IMG/VR virus record: IMGVR_UViG_3300035701_000031
Location: 1-61,433 of that record
Source: a virus
Length of the DNA: 61,433 nucleotides
Direction: 5' to 3' (one strand)
In this document: in pieces, positions 12,429 to 56,784 of the stretch
How the letters are laid out: each line of letters starts with the position of its first letter
How positions within the stretch are numbered: the first letter of the stretch is position 1
Notes under the pieces: generated by a model
Seen by the model: the letters and a program-made list of their open reading frames with translations, nothing else
Told to the model about the DNA's origin: nothing
Databases searched by the model: none
Position numbers and translations under genes: made by a program

Positions 12429-12434
12429 TTCAAT

Positions 12435-14035: not shown

Positions 14036-14620
14036 TCAATCCCCCTCTTTTTTCTTGCCCAAAACTCCAATGGCAGCATCAAGCCTTGCCTTTTTTGTTT
14101 CCTCGTCAAGTGATTCCCAATCTTCAGGCATTTCAAGCCCTGACCCTCCAAGACCAGCTTTCAGCATTCTTGCTTTCCAATCATTTTTTTCTTTTAGGGT
14201 TTGACCAAAAATGTCGCCCATTTTTGCAGCCATGGCAATTGTGTTGAAGGTTTTATTGTCGGAATGGTCTTTGTCCGCATAAGCAAGACCTAACTTTTTT
14301 TCATCACTTGATAACACACCAGATTCACGAATTAATTTTTGTAAAACGGTTTGAAAGTTATAAGATTCCCAAGTCCTATTTATGTAAGTAACTTTTGCAC
14401 TTTCCTTTAAAACGCCATTTATATACAAGTCAGCAATATGTCTGAACCCGTTTCTTGTTTTTTCGTATCTTGCAATTGCTGTGATTTTGTCGTTTATTTT
14501 AAAGTGAGTTCCTTCTATTCCAGCATTAACTTGCCTATAAACTTGTTTGGGGGCAGCAGTCTCAATCCCCTTGCTCGCCAAAGCGTGCCTTGCTGATTCC
14601 TTTATCCATCCTTTCGCCAT
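14036..14620 (-). CDS. Tagged protein, 194 aa
   Basis: The N-terminus is the tag (KGWIKESARHALASKGIET). Residues 38-95 form a beta-rich domain with TAIARYEKTRNGFRHIADLY and NRTWESYNFQTVLQKL, a pattern I have seen in small phage-type domains. The C-terminus is helical. The ATG follows GAGTGATATAA. Part of the operon from 15260 to 11443. Confidence 0.8.
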   Translation of the reverse strand: MAKGWIKESARHALASKGIETAAPKQVYRQVNAGIEGTHFKINDKITAIARYEKTRNGFRHIADLYINGVLKESAKVTYINRTWESYNFQTVLQKLIRESGVLSSDEKKLGLAYADKDHSDNKTFNTIAMAAKMGDIFGQTLKEKNDWKARMLKAGLGGSGLEMPEDWESLDEETKKARLDAAIGVLGKKKEGD

Positions 14621-14625
14621 TTATA

Positions 14626-15054
14626 TCACTCTTCAATTATTTTTGTTAAAATTTTATCTTCTTCCTCTGTTGTTGGCTTTCGCCCTTTTTCTTTTGCGAA
14701 TCTTTCTTTTGCTAAATCAAATTTTTCCTTTTGTTTTTCCATTTTTTTAAATTCTTTTTCACTTTCTCCTGATTCTCTCCAGCCTTTCAAAAATTCTTCT
14801 GGGCTTTCTACCAAATCATATCTTTTCATTTCATCTGCAAGTTTAATACTTCTTATATAAGCATCCATTTCTTCATCAGTATAGCCAAGTTTGTCCATTT
14901 TTTCAATAAGTTTTGTTAATTTTCCAATCGGTGATTTTTCAAATTCCCTTTTTTCTTTGAATTTTGCCCATCTTGCTTTAATTTTTCTTCCTGTTTCAAT
15001 TCCCTTACGGGCTAACGAATGCCTTGCACTTTCCAGTTTCCAGCCTTTTGTCAT
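14626..15054 (-). CDS. Tagged coiled-coil protein, 142 aa
   Basis: N-terminal tag MTKGWKLESARHSLARKGIE. The rest is charged and helical with RWAKFKEKREFEKSPIGKLTK and a GWRESGESEKEFKKM stretch. It is a clear paralogue of 25554..25961 in the other tagged operon. The two operons therefore share more than the tag. Confidence 0.84.
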   Translation of the reverse strand: MTKGWKLESARHSLARKGIETGRKIKARWAKFKEKREFEKSPIGKLTKLIEKMDKLGYTDEEMDAYIRSIKLADEMKRYDLVESPEEFLKGWRESGESEKEFKKMEKQKEKFDLAKERFAKEKGRKPTTEEEDKILTKIIEE

Positions 15055-15300: not shown

Positions 15301-15365
15301 ATCTATGTCCTTTCTTATATAAAAACATTTTGGTTCTTTAAAAATAGAGTAAGACGGAAGAATTA
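15301..15365 (-). promoter_or_regulatory. Repeated promoter block, copy 1
   Basis: Read on the gene strand it has TTCCGTCTTACTC, then TTTTTAAAGAACCAAAATG, then the TATA box TTTTTATATAAG and AAAGGACAT. Copies at 30627..30686, 31803..31863 and 42218..42280 are nearly identical over about 55 bases. It stands 40 bases before the ATG at 15260 and drives the 15.3-11.4 kb operon. Confidence 0.78.
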
Positions 15366-20055: not shown

Positions 20056-22644
20056 CTACCGTAGTATCTCAATTTTGAATCCTCTTTCAGTAATCGCATA
20101 AAGCCGTTTGTTATATTTTTCAAATTCTTCCTCTGTCATAAGTATTGTGTGTTCTGGTTCTTCCTGCTGCGAGTGCATCAGCCTTCCAAATCTTTGGCTT
20201 TCTTGCATTCTGCTCCCGAAAAGAAAACTTACTTCGATTACCCGTTCAATCTCTGGGATGCTTATTCCTTCATCTCCGACCCTGCTTACAACACAGGCAT
20301 TCGCTTCCCTTATTACATCAAGCCTGTCCTTTGTCTGGCTATATACAAATGGGATTTCAAATGTGTCGCTTATTTTCTTCCCGAAGTCGAGTGAATCGCA
20401 AAAGATTAAAGTCTTCACTGGAATTTTCAGCAATTCCCCGATTTTCTTCATCTTTGCCCTGTTATCTTCGAGGAGATAAAGCCTGAATGTTGGTGTTTTG
20501 ATTATCTGTGATTTTAAAAGTTCATCCCATGACATCCCAACTGGAAATCCTGTCAATGCAAAAATATAATTTTCTCTGTGGTCTTCCCTGAAAGGAGAAC
20601 CGCTAAATCCCAATCTATATTTCGTCTTCAAGGTTGCGAGCCTGATAAATGAATCTGCGGGAAGGTGATGGCAATTATGGGTTAAAAAGCCATTTGCCAA
20701 AAATGTATTTGTTCCAGTTGATGTAAAATCAAAAACCTCTTTTCTGCTTTTAATTCGTTCAATTTTGGTTATAGGTGTCAATCTATATTGTTTTCCTTTA
20801 TAAAAAACTGCGTCATTGTTATTTTTACCTTTGTTTGTGCCGATTGAATTAAATTCTTCTCTTGGAAAAACCATTGTATCGCATAATTTATTGAAATCAA
20901 AACCACCGATATTTATTTGGCATAGTTTATTGTGTTTTGGGTTTTTCTTTGTTCGTTCTAAAAAATAACTGTGGATTCCAAGTTTTTTGAGTAATAGTTG
21001 CAACTTAATTACGAATGATTTAGAAGCAACTGAAAAATACGCCCTTTTTGAATTGTTCGTCTCTTTTCTGACCCATCCATCACAAGAAAAACAAAGGGCT
21101 ATAAAAGAACGGATTGATTCCATTGGTGCATAAAAAATTTCATTGTTGATGTCAATTTTGTTTGCTTTTTTCCCTTCAGGAATCTGAAATTTTTCCATTA
21201 ATACTTCTTTTATTTTCTTGGTGCAACACCCGATGGTATAATCCCCTCGTTTATTTGTAAATTCCCAAAATTTATTAATGCCAAAAGAATTTATTCCATC
21301 AATAAAAGTTTGCCTTACAAAAGATTTGCTTTGTTTCCTTATACTAACCTTGACTGTATTGTTATTTTTTTCAATGTGCCCATCACAAGCTATTAAAGCA
21401 ACGAATGCGAGTTGTTTTGGAGACCAATTATTCTTTTGCGTATGTGGTATGGTTTCTGGGATGAGAAGCATATCTTTTTGTTTTAAAAAATCTGCAAATG
21501 ATATGTTCACATCCGCTTCTTTTATCTTAAACCATTGGTTGTTGTGTTTATCTCTTGTTCGTCTGACAATGAGATGTGGATGTGTTTTTGTGGTTTCTAA
21601 AATTCCAAATCCTGTGTGAATTTTTATTGTTTCATTAGTGTATTTTTTGAATTTGCCTTTTACCAAACCGCCAACAACACATTCATCATTTTCAATGCTT
21701 TTTATTTCTTTTATGCCGCCGTCATTAAGAATGACCAATGTATCGCCAGTTAGACATTCATCAAATTCAATCAGGGCATATTCTTTATTCCTGCATTTTT
21801 CAAACGCATGGTATGTTACGACTTCAACTTCGTTTGCAAATTCGGGAATGTATTTTACAATCCTTTCTTCCCATTGTTCTTTCAGGGTTAAAGTTGGCAC
21901 TATGACAAGTTTTCTTCCTTTGATTCTCGCAAGCGCATAAACCCCAAAAAGGCTTTTTCCCGCCCCGAAGCCCCAATAAACTCCCAATGCCCCCCGTTCC
22001 ATGAATTGCAACCAAGCATCCTTTTGATAAGTCCTCAATTCAATTTTGCTCCAGTCTCTTGTGTCTTCTTGCTCAATTGGCTTGGGTATAAAGGGCAAAA
22101 TGCCGTCTTCTATCAATTGCGCCAATAATTTAAATTCCGCCCCATTTTTTATTTTTATTCTGTCGTTTCCTTCCCTTCTTGAAAGGAATTTCCCGTATTT
22201 GTTCCAGACTTTCTCCTGATTCTCTTTGCCAGTTAAGACAACTCCGTCAAAGACTTTAAGTGGCAGGGGCTCTGGAAATTTTAATTTTTCCCGCAAAGTT
22301 GAAGGGATTTGGGCTATCCATTGAAGGTATCTATTCACAACAAAAATATTGAAACTCTTTGTCTGCCTGTCAAGCCAGCCAATCTGAAAATTAACCCATT
22401 TTGGGGCAATGATGTAATATTCGTTCTCCCTTTTAGGAATTATGCAATAGGGTTCTTTAAAAAAATTTGCAAGTTCTTCTTTATCATATTTGCTTAATTG
22501 TAATTGCTCGATTCGGCTTTCAATGTCTTTTCGTATTTTGTCCCTTTGCTCTTGAATTTTTTGTATGAGAGCATCAAATTTTTCCATGTCTTGATTGATG
22601 CTTTTTCGTAAGTCTAATAAGTCGATTGATGTTTCATCAGCCAT
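20056..22644 (-). CDS. SF2 DExH helicase interrupted by an intein, 862 aa precursor
   Basis: The Walker A motif is WGFGAGKSLFG (G225-S231). Motif II is DECHH and is split by the intein between E296 and C658. SGSPFREDH gives motif III, and QESQRFGRLMHS gives motif VI with the arginine finger. The N-terminal 190 residues are a lineage-specific extension with a coiled coil. Without the intein the helicase is about 501 residues, an XPB/RadD-like or type III restriction-like SF2 enzyme. Splicing is needed to rebuild the ATPase motif. It heads the 22.6-19.6 kb operon. Confidence 0.92.
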   Translation of the reverse strand: MADETSIDLLDLRKSINQDMEKFDALIQKIQEQRDKIRKDIESRIEQLQLSKYDKEELANFFKEPYCIIPKRENEYYIIAPKWVNFQIGWLDRQTKSFNIFVVNRYLQWIAQIPSTLREKLKFPEPLPLKVFDGVVLTGKENQEKVWNKYGKFLSRREGNDRIKIKNGAEFKLLAQLIEDGILPFIPKPIEQEDTRDWSKIELRTYQKDAWLQFMERGALGVYWGFGAGKSLFGVYALARIKGRKLVIVPTLTLKEQWEERIVKYIPEFANEVEVVTYHAFEKCRNKEYALIEFDECLTGDTLVILNDGGIKEIKSIENDECVVGGLVKGKFKKYTNETIKIHTGFGILETTKTHPHLIVRRTRDKHNNQWFKIKEADVNISFADFLKQKDMLLIPETIPHTQKNNWSPKQLAFVALIACDGHIEKNNNTVKVSIRKQSKSFVRQTFIDGINSFGINKFWEFTNKRGDYTIGCCTKKIKEVLMEKFQIPEGKKANKIDINNEIFYAPMESIRSFIALCFSCDGWVRKETNNSKRAYFSVASKSFVIKLQLLLKKLGIHSYFLERTKKNPKHNKLCQINIGGFDFNKLCDTMVFPREEFNSIGTNKGKNNNDAVFYKGKQYRLTPITKIERIKSRKEVFDFTSTGTNTFLANGFLTHNCHHLPADSFIRLATLKTKYRLGFSGSPFREDHRENYIFALTGFPVGMSWDELLKSQIIKTPTFRLYLLEDNRAKMKKIGELLKIPVKTLIFCDSLDFGKKISDTFEIPFVYSQTKDRLDVIREANACVVSRVGDEGISIPEIERVIEVSFLFGSRMQESQRFGRLMHSQQEEPEHTILMTEEEFEKYNKRLYAITERGFKIEILR
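20674..21756 (-). mobile_element. Intein with LAGLIDADG (DOD) endonuclease inside the helicase, 361 aa
   Basis: The intein runs from C297 to N657. The N-splice region reads CLTGDTLVILNDGG, block B has TKTHPHLIV, and the C-splice region ends with TFLANGFLTHN followed by C658. Two endonuclease motifs are present (ALIACDGHIEKN and ALCFSCDGWVRK), each with the acidic residue. All splice residues (Cys1, His-Asn, Cys+1) are intact, so both splicing and homing may still work. Insertion lies exactly inside the DExH motif. Confidence 0.93.
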
Positions 22645-23549: not shown

Positions 23550-24167
23550 TTAATCTTTAATTCCATATTTTTCTTTTGCTTTCATCCATCTTCTATGGTC
23601 TTCTCCTTCTGTAAGTTGGTTGCTTATTACAACTGGAATTTTTTTAATTCCGAGTAATTTTGCTGCTGCAACTCTATGTTTTCCTTCATGCCCATCATAT
23701 TTGCCTTTTCGATATTCCAGCCAAGGCATAGCGAATTTGTCGCCTTTTCTCATTGCATCTGCATATTTTTTAATTCCTTTTTCGCCTAAACCTTCTCTGA
23801 TGTCATGTTCATACCCTTTTCCTTTAATTCCTAAATTAACTTTTTCAAAATATTCATCTGGTGTCATCCATACAATTTCCGCTTTTCTGCCTTTGTAATA
23901 TCTTTGATAAAGTTTTCCAACTTTTTCTCCGCCTCGGTCTTCACCATAGAATTGCCCAAGAACATCGTATTGATAAGTTTCTCCAGCGCCTTCTTTCACA
24001 TCTTTATGCTTTAAAGCGAATGGTTGCAATTCTTTTTGTGTTGCATCGGCGTGTGCTGCAACTCTCACGTTCCACATTCGTTGTGGGTCTTTTTCTATCC
24101 CTTTTGTTTCAATCCCCCTTCTGGCTAAACTATGCCTCGCACTTTCCAATCTCCAGCCTTTTGTCAT
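23550..24167 (-). CDS. Tagged protein with ParB/Srx-like domain, 205 aa
   Basis: N-terminal tag MTKGWRLESARHSLARRGIE. The C-terminal part contains WLEYRKGKYDGHEGKHRVAA and AKLLGIKKIPVVIS, the GxEGxHRxxAAxxLGxxxIPV signature of the ParB/sulfiredoxin-like fold, which binds DNA or has ATP/CTPase or nuclease activity in some members. It overlaps the upstream gene as ATGA. Tag fusion with this fold suggests a delivered or packaged DNA-acting protein. Confidence 0.82.
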   Translation of the reverse strand: MTKGWRLESARHSLARRGIETKGIEKDPQRMWNVRVAAHADATQKELQPFALKHKDVKEGAGETYQYDVLGQFYGEDRGGEKVGKLYQRYYKGRKAEIVWMTPDEYFEKVNLGIKGKGYEHDIREGLGEKGIKKYADAMRKGDKFAMPWLEYRKGKYDGHEGKHRVAAAKLLGIKKIPVVISNQLTEGEDHRRWMKAKEKYGIKD

Positions 24168-24598
24168 TTCACAAACCTCTCAACATTTTTTAAATATGGT
24201 TCTATTGCAGTGGCATCTGGAAGCCAATCTCCTGCGAATGATTGGTTATGCATTGCAACTGCTGATTGGAATACTTCATTATATTTTGGATTTTTTCTGA
24301 TAAATTCTTTTATTTGCCCTGCTTTAACTAATCTCCTCCCTGCAATCGAGGAAAGTTTTTGTTTGAACGCCAGCCAGCCCTTTTCATTTGCTTGGACAAA
24401 ACTTCTATAAGTGCCTGTTTTTTTGTATGAATTCAGTTGTCTTCTTGCCTCTTTGACTAATTCTTCTGCCCTTTCGTCTGAAAGTGCTGTGAACTCTTTT
24501 CTTCCGTCTTTTGCGGGAATTTTTATTTGCTTTGTTTCAATTCCTCTTCTTGCTAATGCGTGCCTTGCACTCTCATACCGCCAGCCCTTTTTTGTCAT
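24164..24598 (-). CDS. Tagged protein, 144 aa
   Basis: N-terminal tag KKGWRYESARHALARRGIET, followed by a helical and basic domain (DERAEELVKEARRQLNSYKK). No family recognised. It overlaps the ParB-like gene as ATGA. Confidence 0.8.
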   Translation of the reverse strand: MTKKGWRYESARHALARRGIETKQIKIPAKDGRKEFTALSDERAEELVKEARRQLNSYKKTGTYRSFVQANEKGWLAFKQKLSSIAGRRLVKAGQIKEFIRKNPKYNEVFQSAVAMHNQSFAGDWLPDATAIEPYLKNVERFVK

Positions 24599-25553: not shown

Positions 25554-25961
25554 TTAAAGTTTTGTTATCATCTCATCAACTTCTGCTTCATTCGGCTTTC
25601 GCCCAGTTCTACTCACAAAACCAGCCCTCATTGCATCAAGCCGCCTTAAATCCTGTTCCATTTTTTTAAATTCTTGCTCCCTTTGCCCACTTTCTCTCCA
25701 ACCAATCAAAAACTCTTTGGGGCTTCCTGCACTAATACCATACTTTTCTCCAATCCGAGCTGCCCTAAAATAATCATCAATTTCTTTATCTGTATAACCT
25801 AATTTATACAATTTTTCAATAAATTTTGTTAATTTTCCTATTGGCTCTTTTTCAAATTGTCTCTTTTCTTTGAATTTTGCCCATTTTGTTTTGATTTTTG
25901 TGCTTATACCTTTTCTTGCAAGAGAGTGTCTTGCTGATTCAAAAAACCACCCTTTTTTCAT
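25554..25961 (-). CDS. Tagged coiled-coil protein, 135 aa
   Basis: N-terminal tag MKKGWFFESARHSLARKGIS. The rest is very similar to 14626..15054 (KWAKFKEKRQFEKEPIGKLT, GWRESGQREQEFKKM). These paralogues lie in two different operons. GAGGTGAAACA precedes the ATG. Confidence 0.84.
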   Translation of the reverse strand: MKKGWFFESARHSLARKGISTKIKTKWAKFKEKRQFEKEPIGKLTKFIEKLYKLGYTDKEIDDYFRAARIGEKYGISAGSPKEFLIGWRESGQREQEFKKMEQDLRRLDAMRAGFVSRTGRKPNEAEVDEMITKL

Positions 25962-26852: not shown

Positions 26853-27368
26853 TTATTCACTCATTTCTTTTTTAATTTCCGCAATTAATTTTTCTTTAAG
26901 TTGTTTAAAATTTGCCCCTTTTATCGGATAAAAGTGCACAATATCCCCTCGAACAACTTGGTCATAATATTCATCTAAATTTTCTCTCCATTTGTATTTA
27001 TCTTTTAAAATGCTCAATAATTCAAGGGGAGTGGCTTTTCTAATTCGTGTAAATTCTTCTTTTTGATTAAATTTCTTGTAAATTGGGCTACCCCATTTGG
27101 TCAATTCTCTTGCTGTTTTAATGCCTCTTGCAGCCAATGCGTGCCTTGCTGATTCATATTTCCATCCGACTGGTTTAATGTGTTTTTCTGGAATGTTTAT
27201 CATCATTCCAAGCCCAACTTGCGCTGCTTGTGTTTTTCCCTTTTTATCTGCAAAAATTTCATAATAAGTTTGTCCTTTTTCTTTTTCTGATTTATAAACT
27301 GTCCCCTGCCAGCCTCTAAATTTTCCAGCAACAATTTTCACTGGTTCATCTTTCTTGAATGTTGCCAT
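26853..27368 (-). CDS. KOW-like protein with internal tag, 171 aa
   Basis: The start at 27368 follows GGAAGTGA. The first 65 residues (FKKDEPVKIVAGKFRGWQGT then VYKSEKEKGQTYYEIFAD) look like a KOW/SH3-type barrel. The tag (GWKYESARHALAARGIKT) begins near residue 68, inside the chain. This is a second case in which the tag is not at the N-terminus. Confidence 0.78.
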   Translation of the reverse strand: MATFKKDEPVKIVAGKFRGWQGTVYKSEKEKGQTYYEIFADKKGKTQAAQVGLGMMINIPEKHIKPVGWKYESARHALAARGIKTARELTKWGSPIYKKFNQKEEFTRIRKATPLELLSILKDKYKWRENLDEYYDQVVRGDIVHFYPIKGANFKQLKEKLIAEIKKEMSE

Positions 27369-27376
27369 TTTTTCTT

Positions 27377-28423
27377 TCACTTCCTATTATTTCCATTTTC
27401 TCTCAATAATCTTTGCTGCTCTAATTCCTCGACAATTTGCTGTGCTTCTTCTTCTGAAATTTGCCTTTCTGGAATAGCTGGGGCAGGAATTGGTGCTGTT
27501 GGCTGTGGGGGGGTGGGGATTTGCTCTTCTGGAAATCCGTTTCCAACAGCCTGTTCGGCAATCTGGTCTGCCATCTGTGCCTCTTCATCAGGCGTAGGCT
27601 CTCTGCCTTGTTCCCTTCTAAACCGTTCTTTTGCCCATGAAAGTCCAGCTTTTATCTTTGCTCCCAAATAACCTGCTGCCTCGCCTGCTTTTTCTCCTAC
27701 AACTTCTCCTGCCCTTGAAATAGGTGCTAATCCAGCCGATTGCCTTTCTTCTTGTGCCAACATCTCTGCCTCATCTTCATCGTCAGGGGTTTCAAGATAA
27801 TTTATTTCGATACGAGTTTTTGCCATATCATCAAACTGTTTGTCCAGTGCATCTGCGCCAAATGCTTCTTCCGCAACGTTAAGTGCCTCGCTTTTCTTTC
27901 CGTCTGTTTCTAATGTTCCATCTATTGCTTTTTTTGCGGTTTCATCTGAAGGAAAAATTGTGCCTCCAAGTGTTTCTCCTTGTTTTTCGACTTTTCCCAA
28001 TACTTCTTCTCCAGCGATTTCCGCTTCTCCGCCTATGTTTAAAAGTCCTCCCCCGATTGCTTCCCCTTTTTGCTCAACTCCCCCTACAAAGGCTCCGCCC
28101 AATCCGCCAAAAAAATCAGTAAATGCGGTTTCTGGGCTTCCAATCGGCATTCCAAAAGTTGAGACCTGTTTTTTTTCTTCGGCTTCTGGTTTTTCAGTTT
28201 CAATTTCTGGTGTAACTTCAATTGCTTCTTCAATCGGCTTTTGCAAACTATCTTTTAAGGATGGGGTTTGCTGAACACTTTGTTTAATATTTATGTTTAT
28301 ATTGTCTTTTGGATTGCCTCTTGCCTTTACTTTTTTTCTTTTTGTTCTTCCAAGCGAAATGCCTTTGCCTGTTAAAGAATGTTCTGGATATTCCCTAAAC
28401 CAACCTTTTCCTTCGTTTGTCAT
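27377..28423 (-). CDS. Acidic low-complexity protein with degenerate tag, 348 aa
   Basis: The N-terminus KGWFREYPEHSLTGKGISLG is a degenerate tag. The rest is rich in glutamate, glycine and proline, with a glycine-rich middle (FFGGLGGAFVGGVEQKGEAI), ERFRREQGREPTPDEEAQM, and a PTPPQPTAPIPAPAIP segment near the end. It looks intrinsically disordered in large part. It could be a scaffold or linker protein; no family recognised. Confidence 0.78.
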   Translation of the reverse strand: MTNEGKGWFREYPEHSLTGKGISLGRTKRKKVKARGNPKDNININIKQSVQQTPSLKDSLQKPIEEAIEVTPEIETEKPEAEEKKQVSTFGMPIGSPETAFTDFFGGLGGAFVGGVEQKGEAIGGGLLNIGGEAEIAGEEVLGKVEKQGETLGGTIFPSDETAKKAIDGTLETDGKKSEALNVAEEAFGADALDKQFDDMAKTRIEINYLETPDDEDEAEMLAQEERQSAGLAPISRAGEVVGEKAGEAAGYLGAKIKAGLSWAKERFRREQGREPTPDEEAQMADQIAEQAVGNGFPEEQIPTPPQPTAPIPAPAIPERQISEEEAQQIVEELEQQRLLRENGNNRK

Positions 28424-28785
28424 TTTTCTAAAACCTCTCGTGGAATAATATGGATTCCTTTAAATTCAATGTCGATTTTTAATGCTTTTAAAGCATCTTT
28501 TTTTCTTGTGTAAAAGATGGGTGCATAACTTATATTTGAAATTAATTTGTTACCGCCTGTTAATATCCAACTATTGCCTAATTTAAAAATGGTTTTTTTT
28601 TCTTGGTCGCTTTCCCATTCAATAATATTTTTATCTTTTTTTGTTTGTCGCCAATTTGTATTGGTATATCTTAAATCACCAGAACTATTTTGATATTTTG
28701 CCGACATTACTTTTTGTTGTTTTGTCTTTATTCCTTTTCGGGCAAGTGAATGTCTCGCACTCTCCAGTCTCCAGCCTTTTGTCAT
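28420..28785 (-). CDS. Tagged protein, 121 aa
   Basis: N-terminal tag MTKGWRLESARHSLARKGIK, then a small beta-rich domain with IIEWESDQEKKTIFKLGNSW. The ATG follows GAGGAAGTGAAAAT. Overlaps the downstream gene as ATGA. No family recognised. Confidence 0.8.
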   Translation of the reverse strand: MTKGWRLESARHSLARKGIKTKQQKVMSAKYQNSSGDLRYTNTNWRQTKKDKNIIEWESDQEKKTIFKLGNSWILTGGNKLISNISYAPIFYTRKKDALKALKIDIEFKGIHIIPREVLEK

Positions 28786-28789
28786 ATTT

Positions 28790-29122
28790 TCACTTCCTCT
28801 GTTTTACAATTATTTTATTGCCTTTTAAATGAAAGGAAAGTTGGGGGTATTTTTTCCTTTTATAAAGAACTTCTGCTTCTCTAAATTCTTTTCCCCATTT
28901 TGATTTAAATATGAGATGGATTTCATTGCCTTTTTTCTCAATCTTTTGATATAATGATTTATTTATAGCCAATACATTTTTTTCGGTAGAATAATATTCT
29001 TGCAAATCAATATCGCTGTAAATCATCGGGTGTCTTTTTAATTGTTGTTTTGCCAATGCTGTCTCGATTCCCTTTCGGGCTAAACTATGTCTCGCACTTT
29101 CTGATTTCCAGCCTTTTGTCAT
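28790..29122 (-). CDS. Tagged protein, 110 aa
   Basis: N-terminal tag MTKGWKSESARHSLARKGIE, then a basic alpha/beta domain (EIHLIFKSKWGKEFREAEVL). It directly follows the 29124 gene. No family recognised. Confidence 0.8.
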   Translation of the reverse strand: MTKGWKSESARHSLARKGIETALAKQQLKRHPMIYSDIDLQEYYSTEKNVLAINKSLYQKIEKKGNEIHLIFKSKWGKEFREAEVLYKRKKYPQLSFHLKGNKIIVKQRK

Positions 29123-29123
29123 C

Positions 29124-29324
29124 TCACCACTTCCCTTTTTTTATTTTCATTGTTTTGATTTCTTTAGTGATGCTCTGCATTAAACCGAAGTTCGGTGCTG
29201 ACTTCCACGCTTCTTTCTGGTAATCCTTAACCAAAGTTTTTATTTTTGCGTTTGTGTGAATCTTGGGCTGCATTGCCTTTTTCAAAGAATCTTTAATAAT
29301 CGAATTTAAATTATTTTTTGTCAT
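29124..29324 (-). CDS. 66-residue basic protein without tag
   Basis: Lysine-rich helical protein starting MTKNNLNSIIKDSLKKAM and ending KKGKW. It abuts a tagged gene. It follows GGGGGAAGATT. Function unknown. Confidence 0.68.
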   Translation of the reverse strand: MTKNNLNSIIKDSLKKAMQPKIHTNAKIKTLVKDYQKEAWKSAPNFGLMQSITKEIKTMKIKKGKW

Positions 29325-29358
29325 AATCTTCCCCCTTCGCTTTCAATATAATCTTGCA

Positions 29359-30504
29359 TCACTTCAATTTTTTAAGTGCCTCCAACGCACTTGCCTTTGA
29401 GCCGTATTCTTGAAATTCCCCAACTGTGTCCACAGCACCTGTGCTTTTGTCAAATTTTCTGATGGAGTATTTTCTTTTTGCTTCTGGTGCTTGTTCGCTT
29501 GTGATAAAATATTTATCATTGTGAAGTTCGCTTTCAACCCTACTTTTGAAAAACCTCATTGTGTCTGGGTCAAAGTAATGCTGCCCTTTTTCTTTGTTTA
29601 TCTTCCTCATATCCGCTATTGTCATCTTAAATTCTTCCCTTTTTGTTTCATTAAGAATTACTTTCGCCACTTTTTCTGGTGCTTCTCCCGTTTCGTGTAT
29701 TCTTTTTACCGCTTTCACAAATTGTTTGTCTTGCGGTGTTTGTTCTTTTGGGTCTGCGCCAGTTAAAGCTGTGCTTGTAAATCTTTCTTCATCCCTATAT
29801 TTTTTCTTTAATTGTTCGGCAATTTTTTCAACTTCCGCTTTTTTTCCAGTTGGCACATAATAATCAACGCTTGAACTGAATAAATTGCTTGTTCGGGTTA
29901 TGACTGTCGCAAGCGGAATGCCAACTTCTGCAAGTCTTTTCTTTAGTTCATCATCAAATTTTTTAAGTTCTCGTTCATCTTCTGACATTGAAAGCGCAGT
30001 ATCTGAATGCAATTGTTCCCAACCTTTTGCTTCAACTTCGTAATATCCTCTCCAATCATCTGTTTTATGCCATTTTGAGGTAAAATCACTCCCATCTTCA
30101 ACTACATCGCCAGCAGTTAAATCAAGGTCTTGATATTCCCCTAATTGAATTTTTTGTTCTGTGCCGTCTGGATTTGAAATTATTACTGTGCCAATGGGGT
30201 CTTCTTCATCAAATTGAACCGAAAGATTTTCTGCTTTTGTTTTAATGTATTCATCAAGATTAGTAATGTTGCCTTTTTCTAAATCGTATTTTACTTCTTC
30301 TTCAACAAATTTTTCCCACTTATCTTGATTTTTGGTTGGATGGGCATAATATTCATCGCTTGTTACAATTGCCCTGATTATCTGTTCAAGGTCGGGAGTT
30401 CGTGAACCAAAAAGTGCACTCTTGGGTTTTGTTTTTCTCCCAGTCTCGATTCCCTTACGGGCAAGCGAATGTCTCGCACTTTCCAATCTCCAGCCTTTTG
30501 TCAT
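29359..30504 (-). CDS. Large tagged protein with phage-type C-terminal domain, 381 aa
   Basis: N-terminal tag MTKGWRLESARHSLARKGIE. Residues 120-260 form an alpha/beta region with VIISNPDGTEQKIQLGEYQD. The last 80 residues (MRKINKEKGQHYFDPDTMRF, YFITSEQ, YSIRKFDKSTG, TVGEFQEYGS) match a small domain that also occurs alone in phages (DUF7447 type). It is the second gene of the operon behind the repeated promoter block. A structural or co-injected protein is plausible. Confidence 0.82.
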   Translation of the reverse strand: MTKGWRLESARHSLARKGIETGRKTKPKSALFGSRTPDLEQIIRAIVTSDEYYAHPTKNQDKWEKFVEEEVKYDLEKGNITNLDEYIKTKAENLSVQFDEEDPIGTVIISNPDGTEQKIQLGEYQDLDLTAGDVVEDGSDFTSKWHKTDDWRGYYEVEAKGWEQLHSDTALSMSEDERELKKFDDELKKRLAEVGIPLATVITRTSNLFSSSVDYYVPTGKKAEVEKIAEQLKKKYRDEERFTSTALTGADPKEQTPQDKQFVKAVKRIHETGEAPEKVAKVILNETKREEFKMTIADMRKINKEKGQHYFDPDTMRFFKSRVESELHNDKYFITSEQAPEAKRKYSIRKFDKSTGAVDTVGEFQEYGSKASALEALKKLK

Positions 30505-30607: not shown

Positions 30608-30626
30608 ATTAAATCACTAATATTAG

Positions 30627-30686
30627 TGTCCTTTCTTATATAAAAACATTTTGGTTCTTTAAAAATAGAGTAAGACGGATGAATTA
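30627..30686 (-). promoter_or_regulatory. Repeated promoter block, copy 2
   Basis: Same order of elements as copy 1: TTCATCCGTCTTACTC, TTTTTAAAGAACCAAAATG, TATA box TTTTTATATAAG, AAAGGACAC. It begins at the stop codon of the propeller gene and drives the 8-kb tagged operon. Confidence 0.8.
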
Positions 30687-31790
30687 AACTTTTCCTCCAA
30701 ATATTTTCCCGAATCCACCTACACCATTTTTCATAACAACAAACAATGCGCCAAAGGCAACCACTACTGCACTCAATAACAGTCCGATTCCGAAAAATTG
30801 CCCGATATTAGTCGATTGATGGGACACTCCCATTATAATGCCACTAAAAATGCTGAATAAGCCAGTGATTGATTGAAACAGGGGGTCTATATTTATTGTT
30901 GCTGGGCTTGGCTGGGCTGGCGGTTCAGGTTCTGGCGGTGCTTCTGTTTTATATGTGCCTAAAACACCATCAGACTGTCCTGTAAAAAGATTGCCGTCAT
31001 AAACTGCAAGAGAATTAATTGCTCCTCCAATATCACCTAAATTAGTCCAAATTTTACTTTCATTATTATATGTTCCAAAAACACCAACAGCATCTCCTGT
31101 GAAGAGATTTCCGTCATAAACTATTAATGCGGTAATATTGCTTGCACTAATATCAGCTAAATGAATAGGGTCGGCTATATCACCGTATGTCAAAAAACTG
31201 CCATCATAATCTCCAATAAAAAGGTTGCCATCAAAAACGGCAAGTGAATAACAATTAGTGCCAATACTTCCAACGCCATCAATATATTTTGCACACCCAT
31301 CATCTGGATGGTCAGCAAAAATATTGCCATTATAAATTGTAAAAAATCCTGAATAAGCGTATATGCCCAAATCTGTTGCAATCTTACTATCATTATTATA
31401 TGTTCCGACAAAATTCCCACTCACATAAAAAAGATTTCCGTCATAAAATTCAAAAGAAGTGATGCCCCCGCCAATATCGCCTAAAGAAGTAAAAATTTCA
31501 TTGTTATAAGTCCCTAAAATTCCATTGTCATATCCTGCAAAAAGATTGCCGTCATAGACTGCAAGTGCCCTCAATGAAGTGCCTTCTGCTATGCTTCCTT
31601 TCGAACTCCATACGCCGTTTTTATAAGTTCCTAAAATCCCAGCATCATCTCCAGTAAAAAGATTGCCGTCAAATACGGCAAGAGAAAAAAGCACATCTGC
31701 TTTTCTTCCTAACGAAGCCCATATTCCAGCATAACTGAATGAGAATAACAGCAGCAAGCAAAGCAAAATTAAGATAATTTTATTTTTCAT
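30684..31790 (-). CDS. Secreted seven-repeat beta-propeller with C-terminal membrane anchor, 368 aa
   Basis: A signal peptide (MKNKIILILLCLLLLFSFSYA) is followed by seven repeats built on [FY]DGNLFxG...GTYxN (about 40 residues each), which fits a seven-bladed propeller. After a PPEPEPPAQPSP linker comes a 70-residue anchor with two hydrophobic stretches (FQSITGLFSIFSGIIMGV, FGIGLLLSAVVVAFGALFVV). The anchor is the intronless counterpart of the split gene at 48518..48870. The ATG at 31790 lies about 30 bases after a TATA box without a ribosome binding site. Likely a surface-displayed binding protein. Confidence 0.85.
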   Translation of the reverse strand: MKNKIILILLCLLLLFSFSYAGIWASLGRKADVLFSLAVFDGNLFTGDDAGILGTYKNGVWSSKGSIAEGTSLRALAVYDGNLFAGYDNGILGTYNNEIFTSLGDIGGGITSFEFYDGNLFYVSGNFVGTYNNDSKIATDLGIYAYSGFFTIYNGNIFADHPDDGCAKYIDGVGSIGTNCYSLAVFDGNLFIGDYDGSFLTYGDIADPIHLADISASNITALIVYDGNLFTGDAVGVFGTYNNESKIWTNLGDIGGAINSLAVYDGNLFTGQSDGVLGTYKTEAPPEPEPPAQPSPATINIDPLFQSITGLFSIFSGIIMGVSHQSTNIGQFFGIGLLLSAVVVAFGALFVVMKNGVGGFGKIFGGKV

Positions 31791-31802
31791 TGTAGTAATA
31801 TA

Positions 31803-31863
31803 ATGCCCTTTCTCATATAAAAACATTTTGGTTCTTTAAAAATAGAGTAAGACGGAAGAATTA
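31803..31863 (-). promoter_or_regulatory. Repeated promoter block, copy 3
   Basis: TTCTTCCGTCTTACTC, then TTTTTAAAGAACCAAAATG, TATA box TTTTTATATGAG and AAAGGGCAT. It starts at the stop codon of the gene at 31861 and leads into the propeller gene, whose ATG is close enough for a leaderless transcript. Confidence 0.8.
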
Positions 31864-32328
31864 ATAAGAGTTTTCGTCTTTCACAACAAATTTATTCAAA
31901 TCCGCAGTCGGCGTTTCAAAGCAATCTTCAATCGCATTCTGGTCTTTTAATGGCAAGCAAATTTTTTCGTGGGCATTTTTTAATTTGTAATACGCACCGC
32001 ACTCACAGTAAATTGCATTTACATCGATATTTTCCGCATAAATCGGGCTGCCTTTTGTTATGTAGCCTTTTTCTTCCGCTTCTTTGCATCCAATCTCGCT
32101 TGTAATCCCATCCTTTGTAACATTTATTTTTAAAACGGGTCTGCGGTGTAGAAACGCCTCATAACACCAAGTAATTGGCTCTAATTTTTGATTTTGTTGG
32201 GTATTCTGGTCGGTGCTGGTGTTTTGGTCTATGCCATTGCTGGGCGGTGTGCTGTTCATCACAAGGGCGAGGATTACTACGCAAATTAGTCCAGAAAAAA
32301 CGGCAATGGCTATTTCATTTTCTTTCAT
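31861..32328 (-). CDS. Single-pass membrane protein with cysteines, 155 aa
   Basis: The N-terminal segment IAIAVFSGLICVVILALVM is a membrane helix, followed by a Q/N/T-rich linker and an extracytoplasmic domain with seven cysteines (WCYEAF, IGCKEAEE, YCECGAYY, KICLPL, EDCFET). Disulfide or metal binding is likely. No family recognised. It lies between promoter block 3 and the ATPase genes. Confidence 0.76.
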   Translation of the reverse strand: MKENEIAIAVFSGLICVVILALVMNSTPPSNGIDQNTSTDQNTQQNQKLEPITWCYEAFLHRRPVLKINVTKDGITSEIGCKEAEEKGYITKGSPIYAENIDVNAIYCECGAYYKLKNAHEKICLPLKDQNAIEDCFETPTADLNKFVVKDENSY

Positions 32329-32381: not shown

Positions 32382-32552
32382 TCAATACCTTCTTCTTCCT
32401 CTTTCTTTTGGAATTGCATCTTTGAAAACCCACGACCCCTGACGGAAGGTTTCAAACGCCAGACCTCCAAACCATTTTAATATTTTCCAAACAAATCCCA
32501 ACCATTCTTTCAGAAAATTTTCAATTTTTGTATTTGGGTCGTCATATGGCAT
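32382..32552 (-). CDS. 56-residue amphipathic protein
   Basis: The start at 32552 (MPYDDPNTKIENFLKEW) follows AGGTGAAGAAA and overlaps the ATPase stop region. A W/F-rich amphipathic helix (GFVWKILKWFGGLAFETF) and an arginine tail suggest membrane-surface binding. Confidence 0.65.
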   Translation of the reverse strand: MPYDDPNTKIENFLKEWLGFVWKILKWFGGLAFETFRQGSWVFKDAIPKERGRRRY

Positions 32553-34053
32553 TTTCTTCACCTGCTTTTTTATTTTCCTCTTTTTCAATGTCTTCATTTA
32601 GCCCTTCCGTAATGATATGTTCTCTGGCTTTTTCTGCAATCATTGTCAAAAGCAATTCTTCAGTTTGCAGTGGAAGGTAGTTCATGCCCTTTGCCGAATA
32701 AAATATCATTTTAATTACTTTTTGTGGCGCAATTATATATTTCCCGCTTTTTGTTTGCCGTAAAATTTCGTTTTGCCCCCTCTGCCAAATTTCTTCAGCT
32801 AATTTTTTCAAAAAGTCCCATCTCATGCTTTCTTTTGCCTTTAAACGCCTAATGTGTTCTTGTTTAATTAATTCATATTCCCTGACAATTTTTAATGGAG
32901 GCATTTTCGCCAAAACATATCCTCTTGGCACAAGCATTCCATCATTTGCTCGATGGGTTTTAAGCATTAAAACAAAATAAGCAGGATACCCGCTTCTTTT
33001 TTCTTCTGAAATTTCACAATTAAGGCAGTTTAGCTTTTTGCACACATTGCAAACTTTATTTTTAAATCTAACTGGCTTAAAACTTTCAAGGGTATAATAA
33101 TGCTGATGTTGATGCAAAGAAGGGGCAATGTAAAGCAAATTACACATGGAAAATCGAAGTTGCTCTTCAAAATCTACTAACCTATTTCTAATTGTGTTTG
33201 ACATTAACCCAACTGAAGTTATCTGTTGTTCATCGCACATCATTGTTTGCCTGTTTTGGCTATGTGAAATCAAATCTTCCATTTCTTCAGGATAAAATGC
33301 AATATCTTGTAAGGAAAAAGGTCTGTCAAAAATTTTGCCAAGTATGCGCCCAAACTCAATATTACTTAAACTTTTACCTGAACCCTGACTATTATGAGTT
33401 AAAACCCCATTACCCAAATAAAAATTATGATTATCTGGAACTTGCAAATCAATTGTTTCATCAAATCCAATCTTTTTAATTGATTTGATTTTCACTGAAT
33501 AATTTTGAATTGAATTTCTAAATAAATTACCCCCAATTTTTAATTCGGATAATTTTTTTTCTTTTTTATTTGATAAAAAAAAGGTGTGGTCTTTAGTTGC
33601 ATATATTTTTGTATTATCTTCAACTGTTATTTCATATAACTGTTTTCTTCCAGAATGTATTATTTTTGCTCGTTTATATTCATCTTTGCCTGTCTCAAAA
33701 TTATGCGTTTTAACAAAAACAAATTTTTTAAATTGATTTAATTTTCTTTTTCCATTTTTTGCCCATATCAGAGTATCAAATTTTAAGCAACCTTCGGTGC
33801 TCATCACAACATTACTTCTTGAATCAGCCCTCCATTTCCAACTTTCAATGAGAAGAGAAGTTAATTTTTTTGGATTCTGTTGTTGTGCTAATCTCCAGTA
33901 TTCATCATACGTTGAGCTCGTTTCTGCGAGTTGATAATCTTGGTCAAATGCCCAAGCCGAAAGGGGGTCATCTGAAAAAATATTGAAAGTTTTCCATTGC
34001 CGAGAAAGAGGTTCAATTTCTTGTTTTTTAATTGATTCGATTTCAACTCCCAT
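32542..34053 (-). CDS. P-loop ATPase split by a mini-intein, 503 aa precursor
   Basis: After removing the intein, the sequence reads VVMSTEG joined to SQGSGKSLSNIEFG, a perfect Walker A motif. TMMCDEQQ follows about 55 residues later as Walker B, then a cysteine pair cluster (CNVCKKLNCLNC). The mature protein is about 370 residues. It fits viral assembly, packaging or Zot-like ATPases, but the exact group is unclear. Its neighbours are small membrane proteins, which supports an assembly role. Confidence 0.85.
   Translation of the reverse strand: MGVEIESIKKQEIEPLSRQWKTFNIFSDDPLSAWAFDQDYQLAETSSTYDEYWRLAQQQNPKKLTSLLIESWKWRADSRSNVVMSTEGCLKFDTLIWAKNGKRKLNQFKKFVFVKTHNFETGKDEYKRAKIIHSGRKQLYEITVEDNTKIYATKDHTFFLSNKKEKKLSELKIGGNLFRNSIQNYSVKIKSIKKIGFDETIDLQVPDNHNFYLGNGVLTHNSQGSGKSLSNIEFGRILGKIFDRPFSLQDIAFYPEEMEDLISHSQNRQTMMCDEQQITSVGLMSNTIRNRLVDFEEQLRFSMCNLLYIAPSLHQHQHYYTLESFKPVRFKNKVCNVCKKLNCLNCEISEEKRSGYPAYFVLMLKTHRANDGMLVPRGYVLAKMPPLKIVREYELIKQEHIRRLKAKESMRWDFLKKLAEEIWQRGQNEILRQTKSGKYIIAPQKVIKMIFYSAKGMNYLPLQTEELLLTMIAEKAREHIITEGLNEDIEKEENKKAGEENAI
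33391..33789 (-). mobile_element. Mini-intein inside the Walker A motif of the ATPase, 133 aa
   Basis: The intein runs from C89 to N221. Block A is CLKFDTLIWAKNG, block B TKDHTFFL, block F DLQVPDNHNFYLGNG, and it ends VLTHN with Ser222 as the +1 residue. No LAGLIDADG or HNH motif is present, so it splices but cannot home by itself. It splits GxxGxGKS after its first glycine. Confidence 0.92.
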
Positions 34054-41782: not shown

Positions 41783-42190
41783 TTATCTTAAATCCTTTAC
41801 AGTATAACCATACTTTTTGGCTAAAAATTGTATGCGTTGTTCACTTTCATTTTTTCTTTTTTCTTCTTTTTTAAGTTCTTCTTGTAATTCAACAATTTTT
41901 TTAATATTCTTTTTGTGTTTTGCAAAATCAATGTTATCTTCAATCATACTTATTATTTTTTCACTTTCCTTATAATCACTAATTTGTTCTGATAATGCAG
42001 GTGGATAATGGTGCGTAGCCAATACAAATCCCATTTCTTTACCTATTTTAAATGGAACAGTAATTGGTGAAATAATAAATTTCCCTGCTCTACCCAATTT
42101 ACTAAAAAATTGTTTTGCCTTTTTCCCAGTCTTTATTTTCTTGGCAGCCAGTGAATGCCTCGCACTCTCCAATCTCCATCCTTTTGTCAT
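41783..42190 (-). CDS. Tagged protein with shared C-terminal domain, 135 aa
   Basis: N-terminal tag MTKGWRLESARHSLAAKKIK. The middle (IISPITVPFKIGKEMGFVLA) matches the end of 23154..23540. The end (RIQFLAKKYGYTVKDLR) matches the end of 25134..25529. It is therefore a mosaic of modules from the tagged operons, and it stands alone behind promoter block 4. Confidence 0.8.
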   Translation of the reverse strand: MTKGWRLESARHSLAAKKIKTGKKAKQFFSKLGRAGKFIISPITVPFKIGKEMGFVLATHHYPPALSEQISDYKESEKIISMIEDNIDFAKHKKNIKKIVELQEELKKEEKRKNESEQRIQFLAKKYGYTVKDLR

Positions 42191-42217: not shown

Positions 42218-42280
42218 TCTATGTCCTTTCTTATATAAAAACATTTTGGTTCTTTTAAAATAGAGAAAGACGGAATAGTT
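42218..42280 (-). promoter_or_regulatory. Repeated promoter block, copy 4
   Basis: CTATTCCGTCTTTCTC, TTTTAAAAGAACCAAAATG, TATA box TTTTTATATAAG, AAAGGACAT. This is the same order and nearly the same bases as copies 1-3, upstream of the solitary tagged gene at 42190. Confidence 0.8.
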
Positions 42281-42315
42281 ATCATTCTAATCATTCCTTC
42301 TTTTTCTACATTTTT

Positions 42316-42447
42316 TTACCTTGACAATGCCTTCCATAATACAATGAATCCAAGAATAAGAAAAACCCAAAATAAAATTTCGTATTGAAAATCTTGGCAA
42401 AATTTTGCACCTTGAACTATCACTTCGTGCTGGCAAACATAAGTCAT
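42316..42447 (-). CDS. 43-residue single-helix membrane protein
   Basis: A short N-terminus with two cysteines and one membrane helix (ILFWVFLILGFIVLWKAL). It overlaps the NUMOD3 fragment gene as ATGA. Function unknown. Confidence 0.58.
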   Translation of the reverse strand: MTYVCQHEVIVQGAKFCQDFQYEILFWVFLILGFIVLWKALSR

Positions 42448-42785
42448 TTTTTCCACCTTTTTTTATTTTTTTTGATAAAAGTTCTTTTAAGAGCCAAACT
42501 GATTTTTTTCTTTGTTTTTTCAGAAAGTTTTTTTCCTTTCATTCTTTTGCTGATTTCGGGTCTTTTTTTTCCAGCCCAATACCCGATTTTGCCCCACAGT
42601 GGGTGATTCTTACCTTGAAATTTTTTCTTAATTTCTGGTCGTTTCATTGGATTTTTATTTCCTATACATTTTCCTTTACGGCTTTTACTAATTTTTTGTT
42701 TTGTTTCTTTTGAATGATGTTTACCTAAATGAGAATTACTCATTTTTTTCTTTGTTTCTTTTGACAAAAACCAATATCTGCCCAT
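42444..42785 (-). CDS. NUMOD3-only protein, probable endonuclease remnant, 113 aa
   Basis: The whole protein consists of NUMOD3-type units (KKMSNSHLGKHHSKETKQKI, GKNHPLWGKIGYWAGKKRP) without a nuclease domain. Other copies in this window carry one. It is either a decayed endonuclease or a separate DNA-binding protein. It ends with a lysine-rich stretch. Confidence 0.78.
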   Translation of the reverse strand: MGRYWFLSKETKKKMSNSHLGKHHSKETKQKISKSRKGKCIGNKNPMKRPEIKKKFQGKNHPLWGKIGYWAGKKRPEISKRMKGKKLSEKTKKKISLALKRTFIKKNKKRWKK

Positions 42786-43133: not shown

Positions 43134-46100
43134 TCACTTCTCTCTTTTCTTTCCAGCCGAATATAAAAACATCACTCCAGCAAATAATATTGCAATAAAT
43201 ATAATCAAGGGAGCATAGGTATTGAAAGCGTAAATGACCCACCTTTGTGCATCCCCCGCAGCATCGCCAAAAGAAACTCCACCTTCTCGTGGCGTTGAAA
43301 ATGTAACAAATTCATAGTTTCCTATTGTTGTTTTTCCGAAATAATCGTAATAAACTTTCATTCTCATTTTTATTTTGTGCTCCTTTAAATTTTCAATCAA
43401 TGTGCCATCTGCAACAAGATAATTTGGTGAAGTGAATTTTCTGCCATTAATATAAATTGTAATTTCCCCTGCTGGAATTGATTTTCCTTGTTCAAGCAAT
43501 GTTGTGATTAAATTGCTTCTGCCCACAGTTGATTCATTCAAATCATATAAAGCAAGAGTATCTGCAAAATCATTTGCGTGCAGATTTTTAAATTGAATTG
43601 TGATTTCCCTTGTCCTATTATAATTCAAATCATTTAATTGTGCGACAAATGTCTGGTCAAGTTGCATATTTTGTATTTCTCCTATGCCCCAGCTTCCTGC
43701 TGCCCCCCCCATACATCCAATAACCATTCCGCCAACCGCAGTTGCCCCTGCAATTCCCGCCCCTGTGGATAATGTTACAAGTGCTGCCCCTGCTGGTGCA
43801 CCAAATCCAGTTAAAACTAATCCAATTCCAACAAGAAGACCAATGCCACCAGCCCAAGGCGCAACAGAAGCACACGCACCAGCCATGTCGGCATTTGCGT
43901 GTTCATATTTAAATCTATTCCAAATTGCATTAAAATCGAGATTGTATGGGTCTTCTTCCATCATCAAAATTTCTTCCGCATCTATATTGAAATTGATTAT
44001 TTGATTGACGGCATCGCTTTTATTTGGGTCAAAGCTGCTGTTTGGGGTATAGAGTGTGTATTCTATTTTGTCAATATATTTTCTTCTTGTTGCAATCCAT
44101 TGCTGGAATGTTATTGTATCTGTATCAAAATCGGTTGCCGATGGGGTAAATGGTATTATTTCAACTGTTTGTGGCATTGTTACAACAAAACTGTTGTCTA
44201 TCGTCATATTTATGTCGTTTTGTGCACCAGAATTTTGCCCGCTTTGGTCTGTAATATATACAACAACATTGTAATCACAGGGGCTTCCAACAACACATAA
44301 CCTGTTCCCGTTCCAATCGTATAAATTCGTATTCCACATTAATATATTTTCTCCAGTTTCTACATTATAAAATTGTTCGACTGGATAAAATCTTGGTGTT
44401 AGTGCCCATCCGCCTGTTATTGGTCTCAATTCAAGGCTGCCAAGCAAATAAGGATGAATGTCATCCATTTGTGCTGTTAAAACTTTTGCCACTAATTTCA
44501 TGTTTGTTTCATTTGACATTTTGACTTTGCAGCCTGCATTCCCTATAAATTCCCAAAATTTATTATCGCTTGGAAGTTGCCCATTAGCTTGTATTACATT
44601 CCATAATTCAAGGGCATCAGCCCTATATAAATGCCAATTCCCACTCCAGAAAAGACGATAAATTGTCCAATTATTGGCAAATAGCCATTCCATGGCATCG
44701 TATGAAGGAAGACTTTTTATTTCTGATATTGTTATGCCCGCTATATTCTCAATGCAATTTATATCACTATATTGTGTTGGGTCATATCCCTGAAATTCAA
44801 GCAGTATATGTAATGGCACTTTGCCTATTGGATAAATTGTTCTTCCAATCCAACTATTTGCATCTGTGCTTTTAAAAACGATTTCAGCAAAAGTCGTGTA
44901 ATAACCTGTATTTGGAAAACGCCAATAATTTTGCAAATCATATTCAAAGTCGCAGACCATTCCAGCGCATTGAAAATCAGTTGCTTTGTAAAAAATATGT
45001 TGGTAAGCCAAGGCACTATTTGGTGCTGTATTTTGTGAATTGCAGGTTTTTGTGTCTGCTTGTGCATAATTTGGATTGCACAGCCAATCTCCATAATAAA
45101 TATACATTTTTACTGCACTGAAATTGGCTGGTTCTGTGCCTCTTAATATAATGTCCCCTTTCGGTGCTTGATTTGGCTGCCTTGTTTCTTCTTGAATCTG
45201 AATCATTGCATCATTATTAAACCATGGATAGTGGTGCAATCTTATCCATGCGCTTTGCTGTTCATAGCATTGGGTTGTTCGTGTTTCTATATTTTCACCG
45301 CATAAACTTACTGTTATTTTTATCGGGGTTGTTCTGAATAAAATGCTGCCTGTTATTGACGGCTCTTTTACAACATAAACTGGGGCAATCAAATCATCCA
45401 AAGGAAAAAAGTCTTCTTGTATTGGGCTGGTCAAATCTTTTTCAAATATTTGAATTTTATTTTCATCATTTACGCCATAAGCATATACTTCAACCATATA
45501 TTTCGTGAGTTTTTGTTCCCTGTCATAGGCTAATGTATTGAATTTGAATCCCGCCCCTTCATTAATATATTTGTAAACTTCCCCTATACTAATTCCATTT
45601 AATTTAAAAATTAAATCATAGGCTGGAGATGATGCTCCATTCAAATATACTTGCCCATTTGGATAATTTATATCATCGCTGCTTACAATCCAATAATCAT
45701 TTACATCTGACGTATATAATTCAAAATAATATTGTGTGTCAGTTTGAACTTGAACATTATCAAAATCAAAACACACTTCTTCTGCTGCTGTATTCACACA
45801 CCCTTCTACAAAATCATTTTGTGTTTTTGTTGCTGTGCCCAATAATTCGGTTTTTGTTGTATTATTGTAAATTTTTAAATCGACATCTTGTTCACCAACC
45901 CCTGTTTCAGGGCAGAACTCATCGTCTTTTTTGTATCCTTTTATGCAAATTTGGGAAATTGCGGTTGATATTCCTGTTTTAAATGTTTGCCCAACTACAT
46001 GGCTCGAATCAATATTATTGCCAGTATATTCTGCTGGGTCTATATCTTCACTTATATCTGTAAATCCTATCCCAGTTGGGCTTCCCCAAACATCAAGCGG

Positions 46101-48323: not shown

Positions 48324-48325
48324 TT

Positions 48326-48445
48326 TTATTGCACATCCCATTCCCATTTATGTATGAATAAATCGTTGAATAAAATTACGGCGATGCCTCTGTAAGTGAG
48401 CAGCGCAATTGCTGAAAAAAATATAATTTTTATTAATTCTTCCAT
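48326..48445 (-). CDS. 39-residue membrane peptide upstream of the giant protein
   Basis: MEELIKIIFFSAIALLTYRG and a short end. Its stop lies 2 bases before the ATG of the giant protein and it follows AGAGGAAATAAAAA. The overlap of stop and ribosome binding site fixes the giant protein's start. It has one hydrophobic helix. Confidence 0.62.
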   Translation of the reverse strand: MEELIKIIFFSAIALLTYRGIAVILFNDLFIHKWEWDVQ

Positions 48446-48483
48446 TTTTTATTTCCTCTTTTTTAATTGAAAAAATTTTAACT

Positions 48484-48524
48484 GCCCGTCAAAACGGGCT
48501 ATTTAACAGGTCTAACTTTAGACC
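48484..48524 (-). terminator. Two hairpins after the split gene
   Basis: GGTCTAA/TTAGACC (48509..48524) surrounds the stop codon of the spliced gene. GCCCGT/ACGGGC (48484..48499) follows, with TTAAAATTTTTTC behind it on the gene strand. The second is a good candidate for a terminator of the split gene's transcript. Confidence 0.6.
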
Positions 48525-48870: not shown

Positions 48871-48878
48871 CTGTCTTT

Positions 48879-49961: not shown

Positions 49962-49984
49962 CAAATCATCCCCAATATTACACT

Positions 49985-50016
49985 ATATATATCCTTTCTT
50001 ATATAAAAAATTTTTG
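49985..50016 (-). promoter_or_regulatory. Promoter of the LAGLIDADG/split-gene unit
   Basis: TTTTTTATATAAGAAAGGATATATA repeats the TATA core of the promoter block but lacks its upstream TTCCGTCT part. It lies about 35 bases before the ATG. Confidence 0.6.
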
Positions 50017-50022
50017 CTTGCG

Positions 50023-56779: not shown

Positions 56780-56784
56780 TTTAG

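What the first reader, a model, noticed from the sequence alone, without database searches (positions are those of the whole stretch)
30684..31790. Anchor swap: propeller protein and split-gene product share one membrane anchor
The C-terminal 69 residues of a secreted seven-repeat propeller equal the complete product of the intron-split gene. A third, more distant version is at 50023..50220. This suggests that a common envelope protein has been joined to a receptor-binding head, giving a mixed envelope of headless and headed copies.
Basis: partly seen in the sequence, partly recalled or inferred. Interest (0 to 1): 0.72.

Follow-up and report, generated by a model that had tools for sequence, protein, structure and literature searches.

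The report
Propeller built on spliced protein's membrane anchor
An uncultured, probably archaeal virus encodes a small membrane protein whose gene is cut by three tiny introns, and also an intron-free copy of that protein with a seven-bladed propeller head added, which looks like a coat protein turned into a display stalk, although nothing yet shows that either protein is in the virus particle.

Summary
The last 69 residues of the propeller protein (30684..31790, minus strand) align without a gap to residues 5-73 of the spliced split-gene product (48518..48870), but they are 67% identical (46/69), not equal. The spliced frame requires removal of three micro-introns (37, 51, 43 nt), each at a bulge-helix-bulge site. 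Codon positions 1/2/3 are 73/86/39% identical, so both copies are under purifying selection as protein. A third, distant member (50023..50220; 37% identical) is related beyond shuffling. AlphaFold gives the head as a seven-bladed propeller (Z about 27, 260 residues). The propeller tail and the third member share the same two-helix plan; the split product could only be judged by sequence. Other membrane tails in the window do not resemble the anchor, so the sharing is specific. No relative of propeller or anchor was found in the collections searched. 'One small envelope protein, with and without a head, in one membrane' is the best-supported mechanism, but virion location and receptor binding are inference. 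The same genome shows a second, independent case: a 133-residue C-terminal module shared by three secreted proteins (54903..59883), one with a head of about 870 residues.

The parts
30684..31790 (-). Propeller protein, 368 aa from ATG 31790: signal peptide, seven blades, PEPEPPAQPSP linker, two-helix anchor
30941..31730 (-). Seven-bladed propeller domain (repeat core YDGNLFxGxxxGxxGTYxN)
   Evidence: repeats; AlphaFold single sequence, pLDDT mostly 75-89 in the blades; VIA-align Z 26-27 over about 260 residues against seven-bladed propellers
30684..30893 (-). Anchor segment of the propeller protein, 69 aa plus stop
   Evidence: 67% identical to the spliced product; helices 314-335 and 340-375
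48518..48870 (-). Split anchor gene, spliced product 73 aa (MADLNIDPLFNAISG...GNLFGRRV)
   Evidence: purifying selection in the spliced frame
48822..48858 (-). Intron 1 (37 nt), BHB-type; outer helix weak
48730..48780 (-). Intron 2 (51 nt, in frame), canonical BHB with GTTC/GAAC central helix
48620..48662 (-). Intron 3 (43 nt), BHB with GGTA/TACT central helix
50023..50220 (-). Third, distant, intronless anchor protein (65 aa), start overlapping the stop of 50220..50726
48879..49964 (-). LAGLIDADG homing endonuclease ORF between the third and the split anchor gene, starting with the RHSLA tag
   Evidence: LAGLIDADG_3 E 1.1e-12
31801..31864 (-). Promoter-like element of the propeller gene; further copies at 30624..30687, 15305..15365 and 42221..42281

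Best explanation
A small single-span membrane protein of the virus exists as headless copies (the spliced split-gene product, and a distant paralog at 50023) and as a headed copy in which a Sec signal peptide, a seven-bladed propeller and a proline-rich linker precede the same anchor. All are predicted N-outside, C-inside, with an amphipathic helix lying on the outer face, a QSTxIGQFFG-type hinge and one membrane span. Most likely the headless form is an abundant envelope or virion-membrane protein and the propeller form is a minority spike seated in the same lattice by the shared anchor, displaying the propeller for contact with the host surface. Shown: homology, splicing-consistent gene structure, selection on both copies, propeller fold by prediction, same helix plan for the propeller tail and the third member. 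Inferred: topology, same membrane, virion location, co-assembly, receptor role.
For: Gapless 67% identity over 69 aa. Codon-position identity 73/86/39%. Shuffle and window controls. Predicted propeller and matching two-helix anchors for the propeller tail and the third member. Charges: acidic residues only near the N end and K/R only in the last part of all three, which by the positive-inside rule gives N-out/C-in and agrees with the signal peptide of the headed form. The headless genes lie in a run of large secreted, C-terminally anchored proteins (43134..59883), one with a Hoc-like head-decoration profile match. A second shared-C-terminus set (54903, 55889, 56785) shows that the genome uses common modules with different heads.
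Against: No relative with a known function was found, so virion membership is untested. The genes are 17 kb apart, and the propeller promoter element (60 nt, four copies) is only partly present upstream of the headless operon. The other large surface proteins of the same run carry unrelated anchors. Sequence does not show that 67%-identical anchors co-assemble. The split product was not modelled.
Confidence: 0.5

Rival explanations
1. Host-surface display: the propeller is put on the infected cell, not the virion, for example to block superinfection or alter cell contacts; the shared anchor is a targeting device for the host membrane, and the headless protein does a separate job there.
For: The propeller lies outside the 43-60 kb run and shares its promoter element with three other transcription units, at least two of which start with RHSLA-tagged genes; signal peptide and C-terminal anchor fit any surface protein.
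Against: The specific sharing of an anchor with headless genes placed in the run of large surface proteins is not needed for simple display; other surface proteins here use unrelated anchors.
Confidence: 0.25
2. Gene duplication with divergence only: the anchor was copied as a convenient membrane tail and the two proteins no longer meet.
For: DNA identity is only 66% and third codon positions are 39% identical, so the copies separated long ago.
Against: 46/69 residues are kept, including the polar hinge and the glycine-rich tail and not just hydrophobicity; a generic tail would not need this.
Confidence: 0.2
3. The small proteins are egress factors (holin-like or pyramid-like) and the propeller version regulates or localises them.
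For: Small single-span proteins of this size include lysis and egress proteins in general (background knowledge).
Against: No family match to lysis proteins for any of the three; the outside N-terminus and short inside tail differ from the described pyramid protein as I recall it.
Confidence: 0.05

Closest known systems
Pleolipoviridae spike protein plus small membrane protein (PMC5882103)
   Same: An archaeal viral envelope with one transmembrane spike and one small membrane protein
   Different: As I understand that family the two proteins do not share an anchor; here they are homologous in the anchor. Genomes there are about 7-17 kb; this record is 61 kb
Spindle-shaped virus capsid proteins VP1/VP3 (SSV1, PMC5748691)
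   Same: Small hydrophobic virion proteins
   Different: No sequence match found here; SSV1 uses a separate putative tail protein VP4 rather than a headed copy of the capsid protein
Qbeta A1 readthrough coat protein, luteovirus readthrough protein, Ig-extended tail or capsid proteins (from memory)
   Same: A minority of subunits carry an extra domain on the same assembly module
   Different: There the long form comes from readthrough or frameshift of one gene; here from a second gene, and the short form is the one needing RNA splicing
Archaeal pre-mRNA introns of cbf5 (PMC2738675)
   Same: Short BHB introns in a protein-coding gene; cbf5 introns of 33-39 nt are known
   Different: Three introns in one 73-codon viral gene; that paper mentions only putative 12-bp introns in an archaeal virus, with splicing not demonstrated
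Seven-bladed propellers (WD40, streptogramin B lyase)
   Same: Fold, Z 26-27
   Different: No sequence similarity; about 10-14% identity in structural alignments

Membership tests
Seven-bladed beta-propeller fold | Seven four-stranded blades in a closed ring | tested here: met
   Seven sequence repeats; the predicted model aligns over 34-300 with seven-bladed propellers, Z 26-27, rmsd 2.4-3.2 for most rows. Prediction from a single sequence: best of five models has mean pLDDT 69, the others 35-50
Archaeal BHB introns | 4-bp central helix flanked by 3-nt bulges on opposite strands, cut after the second bulge base | tested here: met
   The scan finds exactly these three in the gene, at the frame-restoring positions, when a short outer helix is allowed (one at 3 bp, two at 2 bp, three at 1 bp). 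BHB matches alone are common by chance (1.7 per shuffled region at the loosest setting), so the weight lies on the coincidence with the gapless alignment
Archaeal BHB introns | Removal from the RNA in vivo | not testable with these tools
   No transcript data
Pleolipoviridae | Homologous spike or membrane protein genes in a 7-17 kb genome | tested here: inconclusive
   No match of the anchor or the propeller to any phage record; record length of 61 kb does not fit, but no direct family profile was run
Spindle-shaped virus capsid proteins | Sequence or fold similarity to VP1/VP3-type proteins | tested here: inconclusive
   No sequence match in phages at E 1; fold search of the small model gave nothing significant, which does not exclude it

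The most novel reading that the evidence does not exclude
The virus sets the ratio of headless to headed envelope subunits by two routes at once: a separate promoter for the headed gene and host tRNA-type splicing for the headless one, so that coat production depends on the host's splicing endonuclease and ligase while spike production does not.
Probability: 0.12. Interest if true: 0.8.

Novelty: new variant of a known kind. Interest (0 to 1): 0.55.

Why it matters
If true, it is a clean case of how a virus gains a receptor-binding spike: by placing a new head on its own coat protein, with the headless original still present for comparison. The paralog without introns also gives independent evidence for the exact splice sites of three micro-introns in a viral gene, which is rare for pre-mRNA splicing in archaeal viruses.

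Tried and rejected
Scans for relatives of the propeller, the 1737-aa protein, the anchor family, the ATPase and the shared 133-aa module in viral contigs and of the anchor in genome contigs: no confirmed relative; these scans need short exact or degenerate peptide seeds, so distant relatives may be missed. Phage records: no match for the propeller, the spliced product, the 1737-aa protein, the ATPase or 54903. Solved structures by sequence: chance level only. The MAG with the same tag motif (G001) has no anchor or propeller match, and its ATPase is not alignable to this one. A BHB intron around the homing endonuclease that would join its tag to the anchor exons: no convincing site; a GGAGGT ribosome-binding site just before ATG 48870 supports an independent start. 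Fold search of the 65-aa model: nothing significant. The 64-nt direct repeat flanking the propeller gene was first taken as a duplication scar; two further copies indicate that it is a promoter element.

Full report
What was checked. The window is a whole virus record of 61,433 bases, 35% G+C, with no tRNA and no Rfam match. Almost all genes lie on the minus strand. BHB-type introns, TATA-like promoter boxes, an XPB-type helicase with an intein, and a tag motif otherwise found in several copies only in a euryarchaeal MAG point to an archaeal host; that is inference.

The propeller protein. The protein has a signal peptide, seven repeats of about 37 residues, a proline-rich linker and a C-terminal hydrophobic tail. 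AlphaFold on the single sequence gives blades of pLDDT mostly 75-89, pTM 0.61; the other four models are much poorer. The best model aligns with seven-bladed propellers at Z 26-27 over about 260 residues and with viral propellers. Blade-to-blade DNA identity reaches 81%, higher than the 66% between the anchor copies, so the head appears to have grown by later tandem duplication.

The split gene. Reading 48870..48518 unspliced gives a stop after 25 codons. Removing 48822..48858, 48730..48780 and 48620..48662 gives 73 residues, MADLNIDPLFNAISGMFSIFNGIVQGVNMQAANIGQMFGIGLMLGAVVLVFGALFAVLRNGVGGFGNLFGRRV. From residue 5 these align to the last 69 residues of the propeller protein with no gap, 46 identical. 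A scan for the BHB layout (4-bp central helix, 3-nt bulges, inner helix of at least 5 bp) finds in this gene exactly those three introns and no other, at the bases predicted by the alignment. Intron 2 has the strongest outer helix, intron 1 the weakest. BHB matches by themselves are not rare: 1.7 per shuffled region at the loosest setting. The force comes from their agreement with the gapless, frame-restoring alignment. The intron of 51 nt is in frame and without a stop, so its retention would still give a protein. Identity by codon position is 73, 86 and 39%, and 28 codons differ silently against 23 that change the residue: both copies have been kept as protein, in the spliced frame.

Specificity. 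The score is 254 against at most 70 in full shuffles and 96 in block shuffles. The third protein scores 78 against the propeller tail, reached by no shuffle of 5000, and 65 against the split product, where 1 full and 18 block shuffles of 5000 reach it; its relation rests mainly on the QSTxIGQFFG hinge. Eleven other window membrane-protein ends score 21-39 against the three. So the anchor is a family of three and not a generic hydrophobic tail.

Structure of the anchor. In the propeller model the anchor is helix 314-335 and helix 340-375. The third protein, predicted with the propeller tail as second row, is helix 2-22 and helix 32-57. Confidence is moderate (mean pLDDT 70, pTM 0.34). The N-terminal helices are amphipathic; only the last part carries K/R. 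The signal peptide puts the propeller outside, hence N-out, C-in; the headless forms have acidic N ends and basic C ends that fit the same topology.

Context. The headless genes lie among large secreted proteins: 1157 aa (Ig/FN3-like, with a match to a Hoc-like head decoration profile), 168 aa, the 65-aa anchor, the homing endonuclease, the split anchor, 1737 aa. The propeller gene lies 17 kb away. Its 60-nt upstream element is shared with three other transcription units; upstream of the headless operon only the TATA-like core matches. No tailed-virus head, portal or terminase profile was matched among the proteins scanned, apart from weak chance-level hits; not all ORFs were scanned. A second set of proteins in the same run, 54903, 55889 and 56785, shares a 133-residue C-terminal module (39-46% identity between the longest and the other two); the longest carries about 870 further N-terminal residues with a DUF2341 domain. 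Sharing of a base with different heads thus occurs twice in this genome, with unrelated bases.

Relatives. None was found for the propeller or the anchor. The family is known only from this record, so no comparative test of the function is possible at present.

Conclusion. Homology of the anchors and the joined architecture are shown. The direction, head added to a small membrane protein, is the parsimonious reading (one gain against two losses) but is unrooted. One membrane with headed and headless copies is the best-supported mechanism at about even odds; virion location and receptor binding remain to be tested. Novelty lies in the combination: a paralog pair, not readthrough, and a headless member that needs three tRNA-type splicing events. 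Archaeal protein-coding BHB introns are known from cbf5, and putative 12-bp introns without shown splicing were mentioned for an archaeal virus (PMC2738675).

Noticed in passing
window 11443..12213, 12731..13135 (C-terminal), 14036..15054, 23550..24598, 25554..25961, 26853..27380, 28420..30504, 41783..42190, 48879..49964; L005, L006: A W..E(S/P)ARH(S/A)LA.KGIKTG tag of about 22 residues sits at one end of a dozen or more otherwise different proteins; the DNA pattern has no match in viral contigs but occurs in several copies in two contigs of one uncultured euryarchaeote MAG. Possibly a packaging or targeting tag.
   Followed up: partly
window 54903..59883: Three tandem secreted proteins share a 133-aa C-terminal module; the longest has about 870 additional N-terminal residues.
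   Followed up: partly
window 15305..15365, 30624..30687, 31801..31864, 42221..42281: A 60-nt element with a TATA-like core, 88-97% identical in four copies, upstream of separate transcription units: a likely virus-specific promoter class.
   Followed up: partly
window 5452..6917: RlaP-type RNA-repair nucleotidyltransferase next to an R2K ATP-grasp protein; RNA repair would fit a virus that relies on RNA splicing, untested.
   Followed up: no
window 32542..34053 and 20056..22644: Inteins in a P-loop (GSGKS) ATPase and in an XPB-like helicase.
   Followed up: no
window 9..463, 3203..3964, 10413..11372, 42444..42785, 60144..61109: Several copies of NUMOD3-repeat homing endonuclease genes (profile matches at 10413..11372 and 60144..61109, the others by DNA or sequence resemblance), some at opposite ends of the record in inverse orientation.
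   Followed up: no
window 12434..12661 and 13550..13780: A 230-nt direct repeat, 84% identical.
   Followed up: no
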